The position numbers and the translations under genes were made by a program. From positions 744,001 to 808,000 of the forward strand of contig NC_014012.1 of assembly GCF_000091325.1 (NCBI RefSeq): a stretch of 64,000 nucleotides of DNA, in the 5' to 3' direction. How positions within the stretch are numbered: position 1 is the first letter of the stretch; each line of letters starts with the position of its first letter. Under the pieces are notes generated by a model, which made no database searches, had not been told where the DNA came from, and saw nothing but the letters and a program-made list of their open reading frames with translations. This DNA comes from Shewanella violacea DSS12. Its GTDB lineage: Bacteria; Pseudomonadota; Gammaproteobacteria; Enterobacterales; Shewanellaceae. Positions 39,701 to 53,528 of this stretch are shown here, one piece after another.

Positions 39701-40483
39701 GCAGTTAAGGCCAATCGATAGCGGCTTAACATGGCGTAGTGAGTTGTAGAAAGCTTCGGTGGTTTGTCCGGTCAAGGTGCGGCCTGATGCATCGGTAATG
39801 GTGCCGGAGATCATTATGGGTAAGCGTGCACCTAGATCGTCATAGACGGTCTCGACGGCAAATAGGGCAGCCTTGGCGTTTAAGGTATCGAAAATGGTTT
39901 CTACCATTATGATATCCGCGCCGCCTTCAATCAGGGCATTGATGGACTCGACATAAGCCTCCACCAGCTCATCGAAGCTGACATTACGGTATCCGGGGTC
40001 GTTCACATCTGGGCTAATAGAACAGGTGCGGTTAGTCGGGCCCAGTACACCGGCAACATAACAGCTGCGGCCAGTCTCTTGCTCGACTTCATCGGCAGCG
40101 GCGCGGGCTAGGCGGGCTCCCTCAAGGTTTATCTGGGCCGAGAACTCCTGCATGTCGTAGTCGGCCATGGCGATGCGCGTCGAGTTGAAGGTGTTGGTCT
40201 CGATAATATCGGCGCCGGCCAGTAGGTATTGTTTATGAATGCCCTTGATGGCAGCAGGCTGAGTGAGCACCAACATGTCGTTGTTGCCCTTTACATCTTT
40301 ATGCCAGTCTTTGAACTGTTCGCCGCGAAAATCTTCCTCTTCCAACTTAAGATCTTGGATCATGGTGCCCATGGCACCATCGAGAATTAGGATCTCTTGC
40401 TCGAGTTGTCGGGTCAATTTTAAGGTGAGCTCTTGACCTTTCTCTTTGGTTATTATTGGGGTACTGAGGGTGTCATTGGCCAT
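36713..40483 (-). CDS. metH: cobalamin-dependent methionine synthase
   Basis: Transfers the methyl group of methyltetrahydrofolate to homocysteine through bound B12. 1256 residues (E. coli 1227). Domains in order: homocysteine-binding with zinc cysteines in GLNCALG (about 255) and GGCCGTT (about 318-319); pterin-binding domain ([25 protein letters not shown]); B12 cap and Rossmann domain with DVHDIG (axial His about 776) and [11 protein letters not shown]-terminal reactivation/AdoMet domain ([15 protein letters not shown]). The upstream 5' flank carries a MetJ-like operator. The B12 it needs could come from the btu/cob genes located 4 kb away on the other strand. Confidence 0.95.
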
Positions 40484-40555
40484 AAGTTCTACCTACCTTA
40501 ATAGATCTGCGCTGCATCTCTATTGAAACCATATGCTGGTTTCGTTTGGATGTTT

Positions 40556-40571
40556 ATACGTATAGACGTCT
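40556..40571. promoter_or_regulatory. MetJ-like operator upstream of metH
   Basis: Two adjacent 8-bp met boxes, ATACGTAT (40556-40563, 6 of 8) and AGACGTCT (40564-40571, perfect consensus), lie 73-88 bases upstream of the metH start. MetJ binds such tandem boxes with AdoMet as co-repressor. No metJ gene is in the window. Confidence 0.7.
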
Positions 40572-40714
40572 ATACTAAACCAGACACGTTTCTGTGTCGA
40601 GTCGCCATATTGTGTGTTCTATCGCCTTGTATATTGACTTATTTCTTAATGATTTCGCCACTCTTTTTAAGGTCTGAACTATGCTTTAAACAGGCTCTTT
40701 ACAGGAGAAATGTG

Positions 40715-40891
40715 GTGTGGAGGAAAAATAATAATCAAGCAGCCTTCAGGCTGTTGGCCCTAGTCACTTGGTTTTTTATCGTCTCATGGCCAGTTGCCAG
40801 CAACATAGCATTTAGCCTATCTAGCATGTTACTAAGCATTACACTGATTTGGCTGTCTTTAATTCTATTTTTATATGCTTTGACTAAGTAG
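40715..40891 (+). CDS. small two-segment membrane protein
   Basis: A 58-residue product (start read as Met) with sequence WRKNNNQAAFRLLALVTWFFIVSWPVASNIAFSLSSMLLSITLIWLSLILFLYALTK: two hydrophobic helices (about 11-27 and 34-54). Starts at GTG 40715 (or GTG 40712) after AGGAG at 40703-40707; the long ORF from 40523 would start inside the metH promoter. It is upstream of a symporter-kinase gene. It may be a small partner of that symporter module, but I do not recognise the family. Confidence 0.6.
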   Translation: MWRKNNNQAAFRLLALVTWFFIVSWPVASNIAFSLSSMLLSITLIWLSLILFLYALTK

Positions 40892-40899
40892 CTTGGTCG

Positions 40900-41094
40900 A
40901 TGATGTCTAGATATGAATTTGAGTCAAACGTACCTCTCCAGTCTCTCGTTGAGACGCTAAAACCTGTGCTTTTCACTTCATACATCCCAATTGTTTATGA
41001 CTCCTTTTGCTGTGACAGTGCAATTACTCAACATTGCGCCGCTAGTTTAAAGATCACTAGTTACACTCACCTTATTGCTGAGGTGACTGCATGA
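40900..41094 (+). CDS. short ORF leading into the start-region repeats (doubtful)
   Basis: A 64-codon ORF starting eight bases after the small membrane protein, without a clear ribosome binding site. Its last nine residues (THLIAEVTA) come from the repeat unit, and its TGA overlaps the first repeat ATG as ATGA. It may simply be the reading frame that runs into the array, but translation through it would couple to the repeated ORFs downstream. Confidence 0.35.
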   Translation: MMSRYEFESNVPLQSLVETLKPVLFTSYIPIVYDSFCCDSAITQHCAASLKITSYTHLIAEVTA

Positions 41095-41520
41095 TTAGTG
41101 CTACGAGTCTGTTGTTAATCATATTCGCTTATGTCGGCTTGCTGTTCGGCACTCACCTTATTGCTGAGGTGACAGCATGATTAGTGCTAGGAGTCTGTTG
41201 TTAATCATATTGGCTTATGTCGGCTTGCTGTTCGGCTGTCACCTTATTGCTGAGGTGACAGCATGATTAGTGCTAGGAGTCTGTTGTTAATCATATTGGC
41301 TTATGTCGGCTTGCTGTTCGGCTGTCACCTTATTGCTGAGGTGACAGCATGATTAGTGCTAGGAGTCTGTTGTTAATCATATTCGCTTATGTCGGCTTGC
41401 TGTTCGGCTCTCACCTTATTGCTGAGGTGACAGCATGATTAGTGCTAGGAGTCTGTTGTTAATCATATTCGCTTATGTCGGCTTGCTGTTCGGCTCTCAC
41501 CTTAAAGGCGAGGTGACAGC
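41091..41520 (+). repeat. five 86-bp tandem copies of the symporter-kinase gene start region
   Basis: ATG codons at 41091, 41177, 41263, 41349 and 41435 precede the true start at 41521 at exactly 86-base steps. Each unit holds the first 19-20 codons of the downstream gene (MISARSLLLIILAYVGLLFG type), then a hairpin (TCACCT...AGGTGA, up to 8 bp) containing the Shine-Dalgarno AGGTGA, then the next ATG. Because 86 is not a multiple of 3, each copy encodes a closed 29-residue ORF ending ...EVTA, whose TGA overlaps the next ATG (ATGA). Units two and three are identical; others differ by a few bases. Confidence 0.97.
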
Positions 41521-44343
41521 ATGATTAGTGCTACAAGCCTGTTATTAATCATATTCGCTTATGTAGGCCTCTTGTATGTCATTGCTGCTTGGGCAGAATC
41601 CGGTAGTAAAGCCGCCGAAAGAATCACCACTAGTGCCGTGGTTTATGCCCTGTCATTAGCCATATATTGTACCAGTTGGACCTTCTTCGGCAGTGTGGGT
41701 ATCGCGACTCGATCCAGTATCTTAATGCTCTCTATCTACTTGGGGCCGACTCTGTTGATGATAGTTATCTGGCCCTTGATGCAAAGAATATTGCTGATTA
41801 AGCAGATCTATAGGGTGACCAGTATCGCTGATTTTCTCTCGGCACGGTTTAACCGCAGTGTGTCCTTGGCAGGTCTCGCGGCTCTAGTGGCCATGATAGG
41901 CATAGTGCCTTATTTAGCCCTGCAACTTAAGGCGATAAATACGTCTATCGATTTACTTCTAGGGGTGCAAACCGAGGTTAAGCTCACCATAGCTTGGCTG
42001 GTTTGGCTGGGCGTCGCCCTGTTTACCATAGTGTTCGGTATTCGCCATCTGGATCCCACCGAGCGCCACCCGGGTATGATGTTAGCCTTAGCCGTGGAAG
42101 GCTTGGTTAAGCTGGCAGCCATGTTATCTGTGGGGGTGTTTGTCTGTTTCGTGATGTTCGACTCTCCCCTGGATATCTTTGCTCAATTGGAGCAGAAGAT
42201 GCCAGAAGCGGCGGCTAAAATGTCTTCTAAGCCCGCATTTGTCACCTGGTTTAGTTATCTAGTGTTAGCAGGTTCTGCCTTTATGTTACTGCCGCGCCAG
42301 TTCCATGTGATGGTGGTGGAAAACCCAGATCCTAATCACGTTAAAAAAGTCCAGTGGTGGCTACCTGTCTATCTTATTCTGATGACTCTGTTTGTCACTC
42401 CTATCGCGGCGGCAGGCTTGCTGTTATTAGGGCCGGACACAGCCGATAGCTACATGTTGTCTATTCCCATGTTAGCCGGCCAAGAGCTATTGACCATATT
42501 CGTGTTTATTGGCGGTTTCTCGGCCTCTATGGCCATGCTAATGGTGTCGGGAATGACCCTATCTACCATGTTTAGTAACCATCTGGTGTTACCGCTTATT
42601 CAGTGGTTTCGGCCCGAAAGTCGCTTGAAAAAGTATCTGCTGCAATCACGTTGGTTGGCGGTATTTGTCGTGCTCGGTGCCGGACAGGTGTTTTACCTTT
42701 ATTTAGGTGAATCTTACATGCTGGTGAACATGGGTATGATCTCATTTGGCGCCGTGTTGCAGTTTTTGCCCTTGGTTATAGCCGGCCTTTACTGGCCCCA
42801 AGTGACATCGAAAGGCGCATTTTCGGGTCTGTGCGCCGGCTTTGGCATCTGGGCATATTGCCTCTTGTTGCCTGCAATAATGAAGAGTGGCTGGATCAAC
42901 GCCGATATCTTGTTAACCGGCCCCTTCGGCGTAGGCTGGCTGCACCCAGAGCATTTATTTGGCACTGAGATGCATAAGATCAGTCATGGGACCTTCTGGT
43001 CAATGGCGGCAAACATCTCGGCGCTGGTATTGGGAAGTTTGTACTCTAAGATGTCCGGAGAGGAGAAGCGTTACAATGCCGAATTTATGGATGTTATGGC
43101 AGAGCGTGTGGCAGAAGATGAAGCCATCATGGATACCTTGCCCAGAGATATCGAGCTTAAGCCCAAACTTGAGCTGCTAAAGGCTATTTTTAGTCAGTAC
43201 CTGTCACCTGAATTTGCCGATATTAAGTTGTCAGCCTGCTTAGGTGAGGCGGGCTTGAGTCAGGCCGAGCTTATCAATGTGCAGGAATTGGCCAATCTAG
43301 AGCGCGCTACCGAGCGGCTATTGAGTGGTATTACTGGGGCTGCAGTGGCTCATATGGTGGTGACTCAGTCGAATATTTATTCTAAGCAGGAGACTCAAAC
43401 CTTAGAGCGATATTATGGCCAGTTACTGGCTCAGTTAAAAATCAGTCCGGCTCAATTGAGGCAACAACTTAACTATTCGAAAGAGAAAGAGTTGTTGGCC
43501 AAGCGGTACTCAGAGCAGATGCAGGGCATAGTCGATGACAGAACCCGTGAGCTTCAATCGACCTTAGATAAACTCAAGAGTGCTCAGGCTCATCTGGTTG
43601 AAACCGAGAAGCAGGCATCGTTGGGCAAAATGGTGGCTGGGATAGCCCATGAGATCAATACCCCTATTGGTGTGTGCGTGACAGCCGCATCCCATCTACA
43701 CGATGAGGTGGTCGCTTTGAAGAAGATGTTTGCCGCCGGAGACTTGAGTGAAGAGGAGTTTCAAGGCTTTATGCAGACTTGTACCGAGGCGATGGATATT
43801 ATTCTCAAGAATAATGCTCGGGCATCTAGCTTGATCCAGAGTTTTAAGCGGGTCGCAGTGGATCAGTCCAGTGAACAGATTAGAGAGTTTAGCCTTAAAG
43901 AATATCTCGAGGAGATCTTAATGTCTCTGCGTCCCACATTGAAAAAAGTGCCCCATGAGGTGAAGATCATATGTTCGGATAAACTCATCTGTAATACCTA
44001 TCCCGGGATCCTGTCTCAGGTGGTGACTAACTTGATAATGAATAGCATGCTGCATGCTTTCAAGCCTGAGCAAGTAGGGGTAGTCACCATAGAAATATCT
44101 GTCAAAGAGGGCACAATATTAATGGATTATAGGGATGATGGCGTCGGCCTAGATGAAGATGGTGAGAAGAATCTATTCGATCCCTTCTATACCACTAAGC
44201 GTAATCAGGGAGGCAGTGGACTGGGCACACATCTGGTGTATAACTTAGTTACCCAGAAACTCAAGGGCGAAGTCGACGTGGAAACCTCACCAGGCAAGGG
44301 ACTCTGTTACCATATACGCTTCCCGCAAAATGTGGAGGACTAG
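41521..44343 (+). CDS. sodium:solute symporter-like sensor histidine kinase (CbrA/PutP-type fusion)
   Basis: A 940-residue inner-membrane protein. About 1-500: 12 to 13 membrane segments of the SSS transporter fold (SIADFLSARFNRS at about 101-113 and GIVPYLALQLKAIN typical). About 500-660: linker. About 660-700: coiled coil (ELQSTLDKLKSAQAHLVETEKQ). Then HisKA with phospho-acceptor His in GIAHEINTPIG (about 708) and HATPase with NLIMNSMLHAF (N box), DDGVGLDEDG (G1), and GGSGLGTHLV (G2). No receiver domain is fused and no response regulator is adjacent. Start ATG 41521 has AGGTGA upstream inside a hairpin. Ligand unknown. Confidence 0.9.
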   Translation: MISATSLLLIIFAYVGLLYVIAAWAESGSKAAERITTSAVVYALSLAIYCTSWTFFGSVGIATRSSILMLSIYLGPTLLMIVIWPLMQRILLIKQIYRVTSIADFLSARFNRSVSLAGLAALVAMIGIVPYLALQLKAINTSIDLLLGVQTEVKLTIAWLVWLGVALFTIVFGIRHLDPTERHPGMMLALAVEGLVKLAAMLSVGVFVCFVMFDSPLDIFAQLEQKMPEAAAKMSSKPAFVTWFSYLVLAGSAFMLLPRQFHVMVVENPDPNHVKKVQWWLPVYLILMTLFVTPIAAAGLLLLGPDTADSYMLSIPMLAGQELLTIFVFIGGFSASMAMLMVSGMTLSTMFSNHLVLPLIQWFRPESRLKKYLLQSRWLAVFVVLGAGQVFYLYLGESYMLVNMGMISFGAVLQFLPLVIAGLYWPQVTSKGAFSGLCAGFGIWAYCLLLPAIMKSGWINADILLTGPFGVGWLHPEHLFGTEMHKISHGTFWSMAANISALVLGSLYSKMSGEEKRYNAEFMDVMAERVAEDEAIMDTLPRDIELKPKLELLKAIFSQYLSPEFADIKLSACLGEAGLSQAELINVQELANLERATERLLSGITGAAVAHMVVTQSNIYSKQETQTLERYYGQLLAQLKISPAQLRQQLNYSKEKELLAKRYSEQMQGIVDDRTRELQSTLDKLKSAQAHLVETEKQASLGKMVAGIAHEINTPIGVCVTAASHLHDEVVALKKMFAAGDLSEEEFQGFMQTCTEAMDIILKNNARASSLIQSFKRVAVDQSSEQIREFSLKEYLEEILMSLRPTLKKVPHEVKIICSDKLICNTYPGILSQVVTNLIMNSMLHAFKPEQVGVVTIEISVKEGTILMDYRDDGVGLDEDGEKNLFDPFYTTKRNQGGSGLGTHLVYNLVTQKLKGEVDVETSPGKGLCYHIRFPQNVED

Positions 44344-44434
44344 ACTTTTTTTGGATTAAAAGAATAGGCGTTAGAATCCAGATTCTAGGAAGTAGTACTA
44401 GAAATAGAAACGGGAAACCAGCAAAGGAGCAAAT

Positions 44435-45103
44435 ATGTCTGACGAGTATCAAGATGACAACAAAAACTGCGCTGAGAATATGGCCGAGTGCACCACTGTC
44501 TTCTATCTTCTCCGTCATGGCGAATGTGAAGGCGGAAATATACTCAGAGGACATACCGATGTCGCCGTGAGTCAGACGGGACGAGCATCTATGACCGCAG
44601 CCATAGATCGCCTCGTGGAGCGTCACGAGGTGGAGTTTGATCAAATATTCTCATCCCCCCTGCGTCGCTGTAGTGAGTTTGCGCTTAATCTTTACCTGAA
44701 AAATGGGGTGCCATTAAAACTGGAGGAAGATTTAAAGGAGGTTAACTTTGGTGATTGGGATGGTGAGACCCTAGAGAGCCTGTATCAGCACTCATCTGAG
44801 ATGATAGAGAGCTACTGGAAAAATCCCTGGGCCGTGACGCCGCCGAATGGCGAGAGCATGCTTGGGTTTGAATCCAGAGTCGATGCAGTGTGGCAATCTA
44901 TTCTGCAGCAATATAGTGGACAGACCTTACTCTTGATCACCCACGCCGGGGTAATGAGACACTTGATGGCCAATGCCCTTGGCGTGAGTGGCGTCGCAGG
45001 GTTTTATACTCAACTGTCATTGGCTTATGCTGCTGTGGTTAAAATATCTGTATTTACCTCGCCCCAAGGCCACTTCACTAAGCTGCACTGGGGCAATGAC
45101 TAG
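44435..45103 (+). CDS. cobC: histidine phosphatase, probable alpha-ribazole phosphatase
   Basis: Phosphoglycerate-mutase-like phosphatase: FYLLRHGECEGGNILRGHTDVAVSQTG with catalytic RHGE (His about 25), SSPLRRC (about 71-77), EVNFGDWDG and the second catalytic His in LLITHAGVMRHL (about 168-179). This arrangement is typical of CobC, which removes the 5' phosphate of alpha-ribazole or adenosylcobalamin phosphate at the end of the nucleotide loop pathway. 222 residues. AAGGAG lies six bases before ATG 44435. Position just before the B12 riboswitch and btu/cob genes supports the cobalamin role, though family members also act on other phosphates. Confidence 0.7.
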   Translation: MSDEYQDDNKNCAENMAECTTVFYLLRHGECEGGNILRGHTDVAVSQTGRASMTAAIDRLVERHEVEFDQIFSSPLRRCSEFALNLYLKNGVPLKLEEDLKEVNFGDWDGETLESLYQHSSEMIESYWKNPWAVTPPNGESMLGFESRVDAVWQSILQQYSGQTLLLITHAGVMRHLMANALGVSGVAGFYTQLSLAYAAVVKISVFTSPQGHFTKLHWGND

Positions 45104-45277
45104 GCCTTTGAAGCTTGCTCCAAGCTAATGCGCGAGTGAGTCCTGCATATGGGATCTAGAGTCGAAGATTTAACTTCGCTGGTACCATTGCCAAGACGGG
45201 TAAAATCGGCATAATAACGCCCATTAGAACTTGTTATCTATTCCTTTTATTATTTTAAGTGGAAGGTTTCAAGTTCG

Positions 45278-45546
45278 CAAAATGAGGTGTTGGGCATTAA
45301 TCTGGCCGCTTAAATAATCGTGAGCCTGTTTTACTGCTAACTCAAACTTAAAAGGGAATTGGGACAATAGCTTGTGGTATTAGTTTATCGCTTATATTTA
45401 TGGCGTTATCAGACTGAGTCATTAGCTTTTAAAAGCCCAAACTGTGCCCGCAACTGTGAGTGATTTTTAAAGACGTTCCTAGACATTTTCAGCTACAGCC
45501 TAGAAGCTTCTTTAACAACACCAGTCAGGATACCTACCTCATTTTG
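45278..45546 (+). ncRNA. cobalamin (B12) riboswitch
   Basis: Closing stem P1: CAAAATGAGGT (45278-45288) pairs perfectly with ACCTCATTTTG (45536-45546). Inside are AAAGGGAAT (45350s), the GTGCCCGCAACTGTGAG core (about 45444-45460) and the B12 box CAGTCAGGATACCTACCT (about 45522-45539), in the known order. The downstream segment CTCGAG-(7)-CTCGGG can form a hairpin overlapping GGGGGAG, the ribosome binding site of the btuD gene at 45587, suggesting translational control when B12 is bound. Confidence 0.92.
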
Positions 45547-45586
45547 TCGCGATCATACTCGAGCGGGTAACTCGGGGGAGCCATAG

Positions 45587-46513
45587 ATGTCATTAGTTTC
45601 AGGCTTAACGTCACAGAGCACATCTGAGCTTGCCTTGGATGTACAGGACCTCTGCTGGCAGGTCGACTCACGCTCGATTCTGTCCCAAATAAGCTTCTCC
45701 ATCAAACGCGGTCAGATGCTCGGCATCATAGGGCCTAATGGTGCGGGAAAGTCGACCTTACTTCGCTGTATCTATCGATATATCAAGCCAGACAGCGGCA
45801 AGATCCAACTTTTTGGCCAAGAGATAACCCATCTATCCTCTAAAGCCTTCGCGCGTGAGGTGGCGGTAGTGCTACAAGACACGCCCCATCATTTTGAGTT
45901 GACCACTGCCCAGCTGGTGGCTATCGGCTTGACGCCTCATAAGGGGCCGTTCGAACTCACTAACGCTGCCGACAGGATCTTGATATCCGATGCTCTGGAA
46001 AAAGTAGGATTAACTCATAAGGCTAAGCAGAGTTATGAGCATCTCTCTGGTGGTGAAAAGCAAAGGGCCTTGATTGCTCGTGCCATAGTGCAACAGCCTA
46101 AACTGCTGATCCTCGATGAGCCGACCAATCATTTAGATATACATTATCAGATCCAGATCATGGAGTTGTTGCATTCAATTGGGATCACAGTAATCACCTC
46201 TATTCACGATCTCAACCTTGCTAGCGCCATGTGTGACAGCTTACTTCTGCTGGAAGAGGGCAAGTGTATTAGCTACGGTTCTCCAAGCGAGGTGCTGACA
46301 GAGCAGGCAATAGGCGAGGTATTTGGTGTCTGTTCCCATGTTACGCCTCACCCTCAACATGGTAATCCACAGATCTGTTATTACTATGGCTATGAAAAGG
46401 GTTACGACAAGGGTTACGAGCCAGGCCATGAGAATAGCCATGAGAAGGATCGTCAACAGAGTCAGCTTAATAAAAATGGCTCGGCATCTCTCGAGGATTC
46501 AGGTCATGGCTAG
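45587..46513 (+). CDS. btuD: vitamin B12 ABC transporter, ATP-binding protein
   Basis: Energises corrinoid import. FecE/BtuD-type ATPase: Walker A GPNGAGKST (about 49-57), Q-loop VVLQDTPHHFELT, signature LSGGEKQR (about 154-161), Walker B LLILDEPTNHLD, switch His in SIHDLN. 308 residues, longer than E. coli BtuD (249), because of a C-terminal tail rich in Gly, Tyr, Lys, His and Glu (YYYGYEKGYDKGYEPGHENSHEKD), a small degenerate repeat of unknown role. The riboswitch lies directly upstream and GGGGGAG precedes the ATG. The end overlaps the btuC start by eight bases. Confidence 0.88.
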   Translation: MSLVSGLTSQSTSELALDVQDLCWQVDSRSILSQISFSIKRGQMLGIIGPNGAGKSTLLRCIYRYIKPDSGKIQLFGQEITHLSSKAFAREVAVVLQDTPHHFELTTAQLVAIGLTPHKGPFELTNAADRILISDALEKVGLTHKAKQSYEHLSGGEKQRALIARAIVQQPKLLILDEPTNHLDIHYQIQIMELLHSIGITVITSIHDLNLASAMCDSLLLLEEGKCISYGSPSEVLTEQAIGEVFGVCSHVTPHPQHGNPQICYYYGYEKGYDKGYEPGHENSHEKDRQQSQLNKNGSASLEDSGHG

Positions 46514-47663
46514 AAGTATTAAGCTCACCGATGAAATAGAAATGGCTGAAACTGATTCAGTTGCAATGAAAACCAGAGAGATGAAGACAGGTGAAGTCGA
46601 CTTGATAAAGCATGAGCTGTTTGCTCATAAGTGGGTTTTACTCGCCTTGGGCTTATTATCTCTGTTGAGTTTGATGTTCGCCGCGAGTTTTGGTGCCGCA
46701 AACATCTCGTCTATGGACACATTAGATGTGGTCTTGCATCAGGCATTTGGCATAGGTGACGTTCCAAGTATCACCCAACGCATAGTAATGGAACTGAGAT
46801 TCCCTCGAGTCATATTGGCATTTATTGCTGGAGCAGGCCTCTCTATCGCAGGTAGCGTGCTGCAAACAGTCACTCGTAATCCATTGGCAGACCCTTATCT
46901 GTTTGGTATCTCTTCCGGGGCTTCATTTGGGGCGGTCATCGTACTGACGCTCTTTACCGGTTCAGGACTTTTTGCTAGCTCAGGGCTGCTCGCCGGCTCT
47001 GGTCTTTTTGAAAGGTTTAGTTGGATGACGTTGCCCTTAGGTGCTTTTATGGGGGCAGGTTTGTCGGTGGCTATGGTGCTGGCTCTGTGTGGTCGACATA
47101 TGAGTAGTCAGATAGAGCGAATGCTGCTCTCTGGCGTGGCGATATCATTTATGTTCGGTGCGCTAACTAGCTTGTTACTCTATTTTTCCGACCCTCAGGC
47201 GGCCGCTTCTGTGCTGTTTTGGAGTCTGGGTAGTTTCTCGAAAGCCAGTTGGAGCGGATTGATTGCGCCTTTGGTTATAGTCACTGGCTGTACTGGTATT
47301 ATCTTATTGTTTAAACGGCAGATAATGGCCATGCGCGCCGGTGATGAAACAGCCCATACATTAGGGATCAACGTGAGTCGATTGCGGCTACAGATGTTGT
47401 TGCTCTGCTCCATCATCACAGCGATACTCGTTGCCAATTGCGGTGGTATAGGTTTTATCGGTTTAATGGTGCCTCATACCGTGAGAATGTTATTTCCCGG
47501 ACAGTTTCCACTCATCACCACAGCCTTAGTTGGTGGGGTGTTTATGGTGTGGATAGATGTCATAGCGCGGACCATCTTGAGTCATCAGGAATTACCCGTA
47601 GGCATAATCACAGCTGTGATAGGCAGCATCTTCTTCCTGTTCATATTGGGCAGTAGGAAGTAA
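46506..47663 (+). CDS. btuC: vitamin B12 ABC transporter, permease
   Basis: FecCD-type inner-membrane permease. After a charged N-terminal stretch of about 40 residues come about ten hydrophobic segments, with ELRFPRVILAFIAGAGLSIAGSVLQTVTRNPLADPYLFGISSGASFGAV (about 96-144), GVAISFMFGALTSLLLYF, FWSLGSFSKASW and GFIGLMVPHTVRMLFPGQFP typical. ATG at 46506 (MARSIKLTDE) overlaps the btuD stop and gives 385 residues; an ORF open from 46323 would run inside btuD. The 30-40 extra N-terminal residues exceed E. coli BtuC (326), so an internal ATG could be the true start. Confidence 0.88.
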   Translation: MARSIKLTDEIEMAETDSVAMKTREMKTGEVDLIKHELFAHKWVLLALGLLSLLSLMFAASFGAANISSMDTLDVVLHQAFGIGDVPSITQRIVMELRFPRVILAFIAGAGLSIAGSVLQTVTRNPLADPYLFGISSGASFGAVIVLTLFTGSGLFASSGLLAGSGLFERFSWMTLPLGAFMGAGLSVAMVLALCGRHMSSQIERMLLSGVAISFMFGALTSLLLYFSDPQAAASVLFWSLGSFSKASWSGLIAPLVIVTGCTGIILLFKRQIMAMRAGDETAHTLGINVSRLRLQMLLLCSIITAILVANCGGIGFIGLMVPHTVRMLFPGQFPLITTALVGGVFMVWIDVIARTILSHQELPVGIITAVIGSIFFLFILGSRK

Positions 47664-47718
47664 AAACTCTCTTAGTTTTATAAAATAATGAATAACGAAA
47701 ATATACAGGGTGTAGATA

Positions 47719-48747
47719 ATGTTTGATATTAGTCCAGTGAGCCATGAGTTCGATGAAGAGATTCAAAACAAGATCGACCATAAAACCAAACCACTTGGCG
47801 CTCTAGGTGAACTGGAAAATATCGCCATTCAACTGGCGCGAATTTTAGATAAAGATAAGCCAGAAATCATCAAGCCTAAGCTGCTTGTTTTTGCCGCTGA
47901 CCATGGCATAGCTGCATTCGGGGTGTCGATAGCCCCAAGTGAGGTGACCACTCAAATGGTGATTAATTTTATCCAAGGCGGCGCCGCAATTAATGTTTTT
48001 TGTCGTCAGGTCGGCTTTGAGTTAGAGGTGATCGATTGTGGGATCTTACAGCCAGTTCAAGGTGTTGAGGGTATTATCGATCAAAGATTAGGGGCGGGCA
48101 CAAAGCCTATTCACAAACAGCCTGCTATGACTTTAGCTGCGGTAAAGCAAGGGTTCGAGATGGCGGCTAACCGAATCGAATATCATCATCAACAAGGGAC
48201 TAATTTAATCGCCTTTGGTGAGATGGGCATAGGCAATACCTCATCGGCGGCGGCAATTATGGCTTGCATCATGAATATGGAGGGGGCCGAATGCGTCGGC
48301 CGCGGCACAGGTATCGATGCCAGCACTCTAGAGCGAAAGCAGCAGCTGATTGAGCAAGCCTTGCATCTTCATGAGGCTGAATTGACCACACCTATGAATA
48401 TTCTGGCCTGTTTAGGTGGCTTTGAGATAGTACAGATGACAGGTGCCATGTTAGCCGCAGCAGAGAGAAATATGATCTTGGTTATCGATGGTTTCATCGC
48501 AACCGCGGCAGCTATGGTAGCGGTTCAAATTAACCCTAATGTACGTGATTATATGATCTTCGGTCATCAGTCCGATGAGCGGGGGCATTGCTTGATGATA
48601 GAGCACCTCCAGGCTAGGCCTCTACTCAAGTTAGGTATGAGGTTGGGCGAAGGAACTGGTGCAGCACTAGCTTTGCCCATGATCCAGGCTGCTGCGGGTT
48701 TCTACAATGAGATGGCCAGCTTAAACGATGTAGGTATAGACATTTAA
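47719..48747 (+). CDS. cobT: nicotinate-nucleotide-dimethylbenzimidazole phosphoribosyltransferase
   Basis: Makes alpha-ribazole 5'-phosphate from dimethylbenzimidazole and nicotinate mononucleotide for the lower B12 ligand. Motifs: [12 protein letters not shown] (about 22-33), [24 protein letters not shown] (about 58-81), [14 protein letters not shown] (about 172-185), VGRGTGIDA, and the catalytic-glutamate region [13 protein letters not shown] (Glu about 314). 342 residues, close to the family norm of about 350. ATG follows the btuC stop by 55 bases, so these genes form one transcription unit under the riboswitch. Confidence 0.93.
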
Positions 48748-53273: not shown

Positions 53274-53370
53274 ATTGCTTAGAGTCAATAAAATAGTTCA
53301 TTAATACATCTATTTTTCAACTGCTTGCAAGCTAGATATTACTGCTCTATTTTATTACTGTCAACCAATC

Positions 53371-53528
53371 TCAGAGTAATAGAGTCTGGTCTGTCATTGA
53401 ATGAAATTGTTATGCGTATTTTTATAAGAGAAGCTAATGAAAACTATCCTCAGAATAATAGAGTCTGGTCTGTCATTGAATGAAATTGTTATGCGTATTT
53501 TTATAAGAGAAGGTAATGAAAACTATCA
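53371..53528 (+). repeat. 79-bp tandem duplication of the btuF start region
   Basis: Copy one (53371-53449) and copy two (53450-53528) differ at only a few bases and both contain the ribosome binding region and ATGAAAACTATC, the first codons of btuF. The first copy's ATG (53437) opens a 31-codon ORF ending at 53532, out of frame with btuF. Only copy two has the better AAGG (AGAAGGTAATG against AGAAGCTAATG). Confidence 0.95.

What the first reader, a model, noticed from the sequence alone, without database searches (positions are those of the whole stretch)
41063..41560. Six-fold tandem array of a gene's translation start, with chained ATGA-coupled mini-ORFs and a hairpin over each ribosome binding site
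Seen directly: five extra 86-bp units precede the symporter-kinase gene. Each contains the gene's first 19-20 codons plus a Shine-Dalgarno AGGTGA inside an inverted repeat (TCACCT...AGGTGA, up to 8 bp) and ends so that its TGA overlaps the next ATG. Every unit encodes a 29-residue hydrophobic peptide matching the first membrane helix of the kinase. Arm bases outside the core differ between copies but the TCACCT/AGGTGA pairing is kept in all. Inference: copy number could tune kinase output by repeated termination-reinitiation, or the peptides could interfere with membrane insertion. Such arrays change by slippage, so this may be a variable expression switch.
Basis: partly seen in the sequence, partly recalled or inferred. 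Interest (0 to 1): 0.85.

Follow-up and report, generated by a model that had tools for sequence, protein, structure and literature searches.

The report
Ribosome relay of repeated gene starts
In front of a membrane sensor-kinase gene of a Shewanella bacterium, the gene's own start has been copied five extra times, each copy a tiny gene whose stop overlaps the next start so that ribosomes could be handed along the chain, and similar copied starts sit at other operon junctions of this genome and of its relatives.

Summary
The array is real: six starts spaced exactly 86 bp (41091-41521), five 29-codon mini-ORFs, each TGA overlapping the next ATG. It is not an assembly accident: of 14 Shewanella genomes with the orthologous kinase, five others carry start arrays with different units (116, 125, 137, 137/149 and probably 149 bp) and the same ATGA link; eight have one start. 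Reading frame is kept but sequence is not: leader ORF and units hold no in-frame stop, while leader pN/pS is 0.76-0.79 against 0.11 for the kinase. The same design, with unrelated sequences, occurs at seven further operon junctions in 1.64 Mb of this genome, and in none of 400 kb of Shewanella G011 or 300 kb of E. coli K-12. Best reading: tandem duplications across stop/start overlaps persist when their length is 2 mod 3, because each unit then passes ribosomes on by termination-reinitiation. Peptides are probably by-products. The SD hairpin is real here but not conserved. Copy-number tuning is plausible, untested. Nearest known thing: mycobacterial MIRUs, which differ by being one dispersed element. 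All evidence is computational.

The parts
40564..40571 (.). AGACGTCT, resembling a MetJ operator half-pair (name recalled), between metH (minus strand) and the small gene; the longer stretch around it is visible in the relatives printed
   Evidence: one match is not more than chance for the 64-kb window (mean 0.53), so weight rests on its conservation by eye only
40715..40891 (+). small membrane-protein gene upstream of the kinase; GTG start chosen by comparison with relatives (a GTG at 40712 is also possible)
   Evidence: no Pfam match for the 40523-40888 translation
40900..41094 (+). leader ORF, 64 codons, whose TGA overlaps the first unit's ATG; a counterpart is seen in 11 of 13 assessable Shewanella loci
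41066..41568 (+). tandem array, period 86 bp
41067..41086 (+). first TCACCT...AGGTGA inverted repeat over the Shine-Dalgarno site; repeats at 41153-41172, 41239-41258, 41325-41344, 41411-41430, 41497-41516
   Evidence: sequence; folding
41091..41180 (+). relay mini-ORF 1, 29 aa
41177..41266 (+). relay mini-ORF 2, 29 aa
41263..41352 (+). relay mini-ORF 3, 29 aa
41349..41438 (+). relay mini-ORF 4, 29 aa
41435..41524 (+). relay mini-ORF 5, 29 aa
41521..44343 (+). symporter-histidine kinase gene, 940 aa: SSF (PF00474) and HATPase_c (PF02518) above their cut-offs, HisKA (PF00512) below its cut-off

Best explanation
The array is a chain of relay mini-ORFs made by tandem duplication across a translationally coupled junction. 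The duplicated piece is the end of the upstream coupled ORF plus the first codons of the kinase. If its length is 2 mod 3 and its frame is open, a ribosome that ends one unit on TGA stands on the ATG of the next and can reinitiate, so the ribosome flow from the small gene through the leader ORF to the kinase is kept. Other lengths would break the chain and leave the kinase start far from any terminating ribosome. So the junction can grow and shrink (1 to 6 starts between relatives) while only coupling-preserving units persist. Shown by computation: the anatomy, the 2-mod-3 rule, the open frame, the near-neutral sequence of leader and gltD mini-ORF, recurrence in relatives and at seven further junctions. 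Inferred: that ribosomes actually do this, that selection on coupling is the filter, and that each added unit changes kinase output.
For: (1) Exact ATGA chain in the window. (2) Start arrays at the orthologous kinase in 6 of 14 Shewanella genomes, unit lengths 86, 116, 125, 137, 149, all 2 mod 3 and ATGA-linked; the G027 unit is cut by its contig end and is 149 only if its missing head equals the gene's. (3) The coupled frame is open from just after the small gene to the kinase in 11 of 13 assessable loci; in KT99 the leader is gone but the small gene's own stop overlaps the first unit's ATG. (4) pN/pS 0.76 (leader, 5 genomes), 0.79 (leader, 5 genomes of the second clade), 0.82 (gltD mini-ORF, 6 genomes) against 0.11 (kinase codons 1-80) and 0.06 (gltD codons 1-60); 0 stops of 239, 155 and 165 codons in the coupled frame against 10-25 in each other frame. 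(5) In a third of this genome 8 of 771 candidate 4-nt junctions have a mini-ORF starting with a copy of the gene's start (identity at least 0.72), the other 763 lie below 0.60; 0 of 211 in G011, 0 of 248 in E. coli K-12, 1 of 172 in G010; all eight have an abutting upstream ORF. (6) Phase-blind scan: 17 start duplications outside protein repeats; 8 at abutting junctions (the kinase counted through its leader) are all 2 mod 3 and 7 of 8 chained; of 9 elsewhere 4 are 2 mod 3 and none is chained (grouping by hand, chance figures 0.020 and 0.0004, both post hoc). In relatives 16 of 45 junctions examined had a copied start, 16 of 16 being 2 mod 3 and chained. (7) In Pseudomonas putida translation of the small ORF cbrX, not its peptide sequence, is needed for the symporter-kinase CbrA (PMC6591292, abstract and passages); in E. 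coli coupling falls steeply with stop-start distance (PMC10666635, abstract and passages).
Against: No ribosome profiling, RNA or expression data. The genome is rich in tandem repeats (46 arrays of period 30 or more in 844 kb, against 1 and 3 in 400 kb of G010 and G011), so the copies may be mere by-products. The ispD-like junction (L210, 71 bp) is 2 mod 3 but its mini-ORF stops 41 nt early. Kinase units themselves have pN/pS 0.45, which may reflect copying from the kinase head or some constraint on the peptide. The close relative G003 does without an array. Cases in relatives are partly inherited, so they are not independent events, and the class was defined after the first cases were seen.
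Confidence: 0.7

Rival explanations
1. Adaptive expression dial: the number of relay units is selected because each hand-over passes on only part of the ribosome flow (or adds an entry site), so copy number sets kinase dose and can change by slippage.
For: Copy number differs between relatives: 6, 4, 4, 6, 2, at least 2, and 1 starts; two strains named S. benthica have 4 and 6. Copies within a genome are more alike than between genomes in the four longest arrays (0.93-0.99 against 0.78-0.85 over 57 nt), so they turn over. In G010 long tandem arrays are rare (1 in 400 kb) yet it keeps this one.
Against: No measurement of output against copy number and no within-strain variation seen; the high repeat load of this genome gives a plain alternative.
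Confidence: 0.25
2. Hairpin-gated starts: the SD hairpin, and a second predicted one over the ATG, close each start unless the upstream unit is being translated, making a series of locks or a temperature sensor.
For: SD stems of 7-12 bp at five of six starts here, z -4.46 and -2.58 at two; CCTCC/GGAGG stem in G083. The ATG is mostly paired in 6 of 7 array-clade genomes tested (unpaired 0.01-0.12), below nearly all synonymous recodings in most of them (11 to 25 of 300 as low in five, 55 of 300 in G003).
Against: No SD stem in KT99 or in two DSM 8812 starts; z near zero there and in G003. ATG pairing in KT99 is no lower than recodings (148 of 300). AttH and DUF4266 junctions show no special structure (z 2.39, -0.05). 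So structure is not the common factor.
Confidence: 0.12
3. Functional peptides: the hydrophobic mini-proteins act on the kinase or on membrane insertion.
For: Kinase units keep the first helix in five of six unit types and pN/pS is 0.45.
Against: Same architecture with unrelated, often polar peptides at other junctions; gltD mini-ORF and leader drift nearly neutrally; the G083 unit has charged and polar residues inside the helix.
Confidence: 0.06
4. Plain minisatellite without any role in translation; phase agreement is luck.
For: 54.5 long tandem arrays per Mb in this genome; start duplications away from junctions do not keep phase.
Against: Phase and chain are kept at abutting junctions here and in relatives with different unit lengths.
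Confidence: 0.12
5. DNA operator array: TCACCT-N8-AGGTGA is a repeated binding site for a regulator.
For: It is an inverted repeat present six times.
Against: Lost in KT99 and in most DSM 8812 copies while the chain is kept; no search of the genome for the motif was made.
Confidence: 0.03

Closest known systems
MIRUs (mycobacterial interspersed repetitive units), e.g. in the senX3-regX3 intergenic region
   Same: Short, tandem, copy-variable units between genes, each with an ORF coupled by a 4-nt overlap (PMC12548453 section 11, read); 77- and 53-bp units (PMC4213456, passages), both 2 mod 3 by my arithmetic.
   Different: MIRUs are one repeated, apparently mobile element at many sites. Here each array is made of its own neighbouring genes: the window array has no other match in its genome, and units at the eight junctions are unrelated.
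cbrX-cbrA translational coupling in Pseudomonas putida
   Same: A small upstream ORF whose translation, not sequence, is needed for a symporter-histidine kinase (PMC6591292, abstract and passages).
   Different: cbrX overlaps cbrA by 17 nt and is single copy; here 4-nt overlaps, a near-neutral leader and a tandem array of the kinase's own start.
Termination-reinitiation at ATGA gene overlaps
   Same: ATGA stop/start overlap with SD inside the upstream frame (PMC6728339 and PMC10666635, passages).
   Different: Those are pairs of real genes; here the overlap itself is multiplied into chains of mini-ORFs.
Synthetic upstream 'nonsense' ORF boosters
   Same: A short non-functional ORF with an internal RBS placed before a gene raises its translation up to 20-fold (PMC13255528, abstract only).
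   Different: Engineered single ORF; the natural array has up to five in series.

Membership tests
MIRU | ORF in the unit coupled by 4-nt overlap to the following gene | tested here: met
MIRU | Tandem copies whose number varies between strains | tested here: inconclusive
   varies between species and between two strains named S. benthica; no set of strains of one species was available
MIRU | Same element dispersed at many genomic sites, apparently mobile | tested here: not met
   single match in own genome; units at other junctions have unrelated sequence
Translational coupling by termination-reinitiation | Stop and start overlap or nearly touch, with an SD before the start | tested here: met
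Translational coupling by termination-reinitiation | Downstream translation depends on upstream translation | not testable with these tools
   needs reporters or ribosome profiling; only frame conservation was seen
SLC5-type symporter histidine kinases (CbrA/CrbS kind) | Symporter domain fused to histidine kinase | tested here: met
   SSF and HATPase_c above cut-off, HisKA below its cut-off
SLC5-type symporter histidine kinases (CbrA/CrbS kind) | STAC domain between them | not tested
   no STAC model was reported and none was sought separately
Phase-variable / contingency VNTR locus | Copy number changes within a population and alters expression | not testable with these tools
   no reads, one genome per species

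The most novel reading that the evidence does not exclude
Operon junctions in a clade of Shewanella are an evolving, self-made class of genetic element: coupled stop/start overlaps amplify themselves into chains of non-functional relay mini-ORFs whose length is held to 2 mod 3 by the ribosome, and whose copy number is used to set the ratio between operon partners.
Probability: 0.3. Interest if true: 0.85.

Novelty: new variant of a known kind. Interest (0 to 1): 0.72.

Why it matters
It would be natural evidence, readable from sequence alone, that ribosome hand-over at stop/start overlaps is strong enough to decide which tandem duplications survive inside operons. It predicts a simple rule (2 mod 3, open frame) that can be tested in whole genomes and with reporters, offers ready-made series of 1 to 6 hand-overs to measure reinitiation efficiency, and explains why annotators list many tiny 'hypothetical proteins' at such junctions (three such proteins were found).

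Tried and rejected
Rfam over 40300-41800 gave only two sub-threshold miRNA matches (19 bits against a gathering score of 100). No match of the array in plasmids. Promoter scan: five promoter-like hits on the minus strand, one per unit, are copies of one weak 9-of-12 match; not pursued. Peptide search: 3 proteins from 4 candidates, all of this locus type by sequence (two named S. psychrophila and S. benthica KT99, one from an unnamed 797-base contig), so no wider peptide family. Assembly artefact rejected: arrays in several separate assemblies. Peptide function and SD hairpin as the common principle: see rivals. Tree: the array holders form one clade (with G003 inside, fork 88/96) plus G083, whose place is unresolved; so a loss in G003 and separate gains cannot be told apart. 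DUF4266 orthologs in G003 and G010 could not be read reliably. G140 has a coupled mini-ORF before gltD with only 0.53 start identity and was left out of the counts; G151 was unclear; 28 of the 30 fetched gltD loci were given to the script. Two of eleven stretches folded (L087, L226) were mis-aimed and do not cover a start; they are ignored. In one search, 6 of 51 listed junctions were skipped because my start position was off; those six had been walked. Paper searches that found no description of such junction arrays: (open-licence PMC papers only; the original MIRU papers were not read).
Full report
WHAT IS THERE. The window is G000:C1:744001-808000 of a single-contig, 4,962,103-bp Shewanella genome (the size fits S. 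violacea DSS12, which is recalled and not from a call). Six ATGA starts stand at exact 86-bp spacing from 41091 to 41521. Each of the first five opens a 29-codon ORF whose TGA overlaps the next ATG; the sixth opens the 940-aa symporter-histidine kinase. Upstream lie a small membrane-protein gene ending at 40891 and a 64-codon ORF (40900-41094) that also ends in the first ATGA. So an unbroken chain of touching ORFs runs from the small gene to the kinase.

RELATIVES OF THE KINASE LOCUS. In 129 Shewanella genomes 14 hold an orthologue; a scan of genome contigs added two Vibrio. Six of the 14 have start arrays: the window (6 starts, 86 bp), G010 = S. psychrophila by the name of its protein P0001 (4 starts, 137 bp), G071 = S. 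benthica DSM 8812 (4 starts; 137, 149, 137), G072 = S. benthica KT99 (6 starts, 125 bp), G027 = MAG DT_112 (at least 2; the contig begins inside a unit) and G083 (2 starts, 116 bp) (G071 and G072 matched to names by contig coordinates). The other eight have one start, among them the close relative G003. Every complete unit is 2 mod 3 and ATGA-linked. The units differ in their distal part: they combine the kinase's first codons with the tail of the coupled upstream ORF, as is plainest in G083, where leader and unit end alike. Within the four longest arrays copies are more alike than between genomes (0.93-0.99 against 0.78-0.85 over the first 57 nt), which points to turnover.

FRAME WITHOUT SEQUENCE. 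In 11 of 13 Shewanella loci where the upstream DNA is held, the frame that ends in the kinase's ATGA is open back to just behind the small gene. The exceptions are S. waksmanii and KT99; in KT99 the leader is missing and the small gene's own stop overlaps the first unit's ATG. Vibrio loci have no leader; the kinase follows the small gene directly. pN/pS summed over pairs is 0.76 for the leader in five genomes, 0.79 in five of the second clade, against 0.11 for kinase codons 1-80; the coupled frame has 0 stops of 239 and of 155 codons, the other frames 10 to 23 each. Kinase units give 0.45, between the two, which could come from copying out of the kinase head or from some constraint.

A CLASS, NOT A SINGLE CASE. 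I sampled 1.644 Mb of this genome (and the window) for 4-nt junctions at which a mini-ORF begins with a copy of the downstream gene's start. Of 771 candidates eight reach 0.72 or more in a 36-nt comparison; the other 763 stay below 0.60. G010 gave 1 of 172 (0.69), G011 0 of 211, E. coli K-12 0 of 248. The eight are the kinase (86 bp), a CrtC/lipocalin-like gene (62 x 2), a DUF4266 gene (92 x 3), a MacB/FtsX-like permease (95 x 3), a P-domain protein (161 x 2), a MacB_PCD protein that looks LolC-like (83), gltD-like (92), and an unnamed 252-aa gene (98). In each an upstream ORF ends on or within 8 nt of the first copy (for the kinase it is the leader), and in most the unit is the upstream gene's tail plus the downstream gene's head; for gltD and the LolC-like gene the tails are too diverged to say (0.53-0.57 over 30 nt). 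Simple proportion suggests about 24 in the whole genome.

THE PHASE RULE. A scan that does not ask for coupling found 20 loci with a copied start in this genome; three are protein repeats. Of the remaining 17, eight are at junctions where the upstream ORF abuts (the kinase through its leader): 8 of 8 are 2 mod 3 and 7 of 8 are chained, the exception being an ispD-like gene. Of nine elsewhere, 4 are 2 mod 3 and 0 are chained. Chance figures (0.020 for phase, 0.0004 for chaining) are post hoc. In relatives: gltD has the mini-ORF in 6 of 28 loci read (77, 77, 77, 83, 83, 92 bp), the MacB-like junction in 6 of 9 genomes (95 or 83 bp, 1 to 3 copies), the LolC-like one in 6 of 9 (68, 80, 83 bp, 1 to 4 copies), the CrtC-like one in 4 of 9 (62, 116, 122 bp, 1 to 2 copies). 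A phase-blind pass over 45 of these orthologous junctions found copied starts in 16, all 16 being 2 mod 3 and chained. The gltD mini-ORF has pN/pS 0.82 against 0.06 for gltD and no stop in 165 codons.

HOW IT MOST LIKELY WORKS. Coupling in E. coli falls steeply with stop-start distance: +38 nt nearly or fully abolished reinitiation for three gene pairs (PMC10666635, abstract and passages; that paper also cites reports of weaker distance dependence). A duplication across a coupled junction would therefore cut the downstream gene off unless the added piece is itself a coupled ORF, which needs 2 mod 3 and an open frame. That filter explains phase, open frame, drift of peptide sequence, and the lack of chaining away from such junctions. 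In P. putida the symporter-kinase CbrA depends on translation of a small upstream ORF and not on its peptide (PMC6591292, abstract and passages). Shown: anatomy, phase, drift, recurrence. Inferred: ribosome passage and selection on coupling. Open: whether copy number is neutral or tuned. The genome's very high load of tandem repeats (46 arrays of period 30 or more in 844 kb, against 1 and 3 in 400 kb of G010 and G011) makes a neutral supply of duplications likely; the presence of the kinase array in G010 despite its low repeat load speaks for retention.

STRUCTURE. A second predicted hairpin holds the ATG in 6 of 7 array-clade genomes, moderately more than synonymous recodings. Neither is common to the other junctions tested. 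Both may strengthen dependence on the upstream ribosome at the kinase, but they are not the rule behind the class.

PLACE AMONG KNOWN THINGS. The nearest relative in working is the MIRU: a coupled mini-ORF unit with 4-nt overlaps, thought to insert with little effect on the gene behind it (PMC12548453 section 11), with 77- and 53-bp units in tandem between senX3 and regX3 (PMC4213456, passages). Membership fails on dispersal: the kinase array is found once and other junctions have their own sequences. I call it a new variant of a known kind. Seven paper searches showed no description of such locally made junction arrays; the library holds open-licence PMC papers only.

Noticed in passing
window 53370-53527: 79-bp tandem duplication that copies the start of a periplasmic-binding-protein gene (PF01497; start 53516) out of phase (1 mod 3); a useful contrast to the chained junctions.
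   Followed up: partly
G000 sample, L088-L126 and window: Very high density of long tandem repeats: 46 merged arrays of period 30 or more in 844 kb, against 1 in 400 kb of G010 and 3 in 400 kb of G011.
   Followed up: partly
L090 8807-10219: 181-bp unit repeated 7.8 times, overlapping one end of a 2088-bp minus-strand ORF.
   Followed up: no
window 40523-48747: The kinase lies beside cobalamin-related genes: metH divergent upstream, then a histidine-phosphatase gene and, by my reading of the translations, an ABC transporter pair and a cobT-like gene downstream (only metH and the phosphatase were checked by Pfam). A conserved AGACGTCT-containing stretch between metH and the small gene resembles a MetJ site (recalled).
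   Followed up: partly
L034 2801-3001: In KT99 a deletion joins the small gene's end to the first array unit, so the small gene's stop now overlaps the unit's ATG by 8 nt; coupling geometry is kept by another route.
   Followed up: partly
L230 (G140): A Shewanella outside the clade has a 30-codon ATGA-coupled mini-ORF (89 bp) before gltD with only weak likeness to the gltD start; possibly an older or separate case.
   Followed up: no
L210 15845 (minus strand): ispD-like gene with a 71-bp start duplication whose mini-ORF stops early; a shorter internal ATG frame in the unit may still reach the gene's ATGA (read by eye).
   Followed up: no
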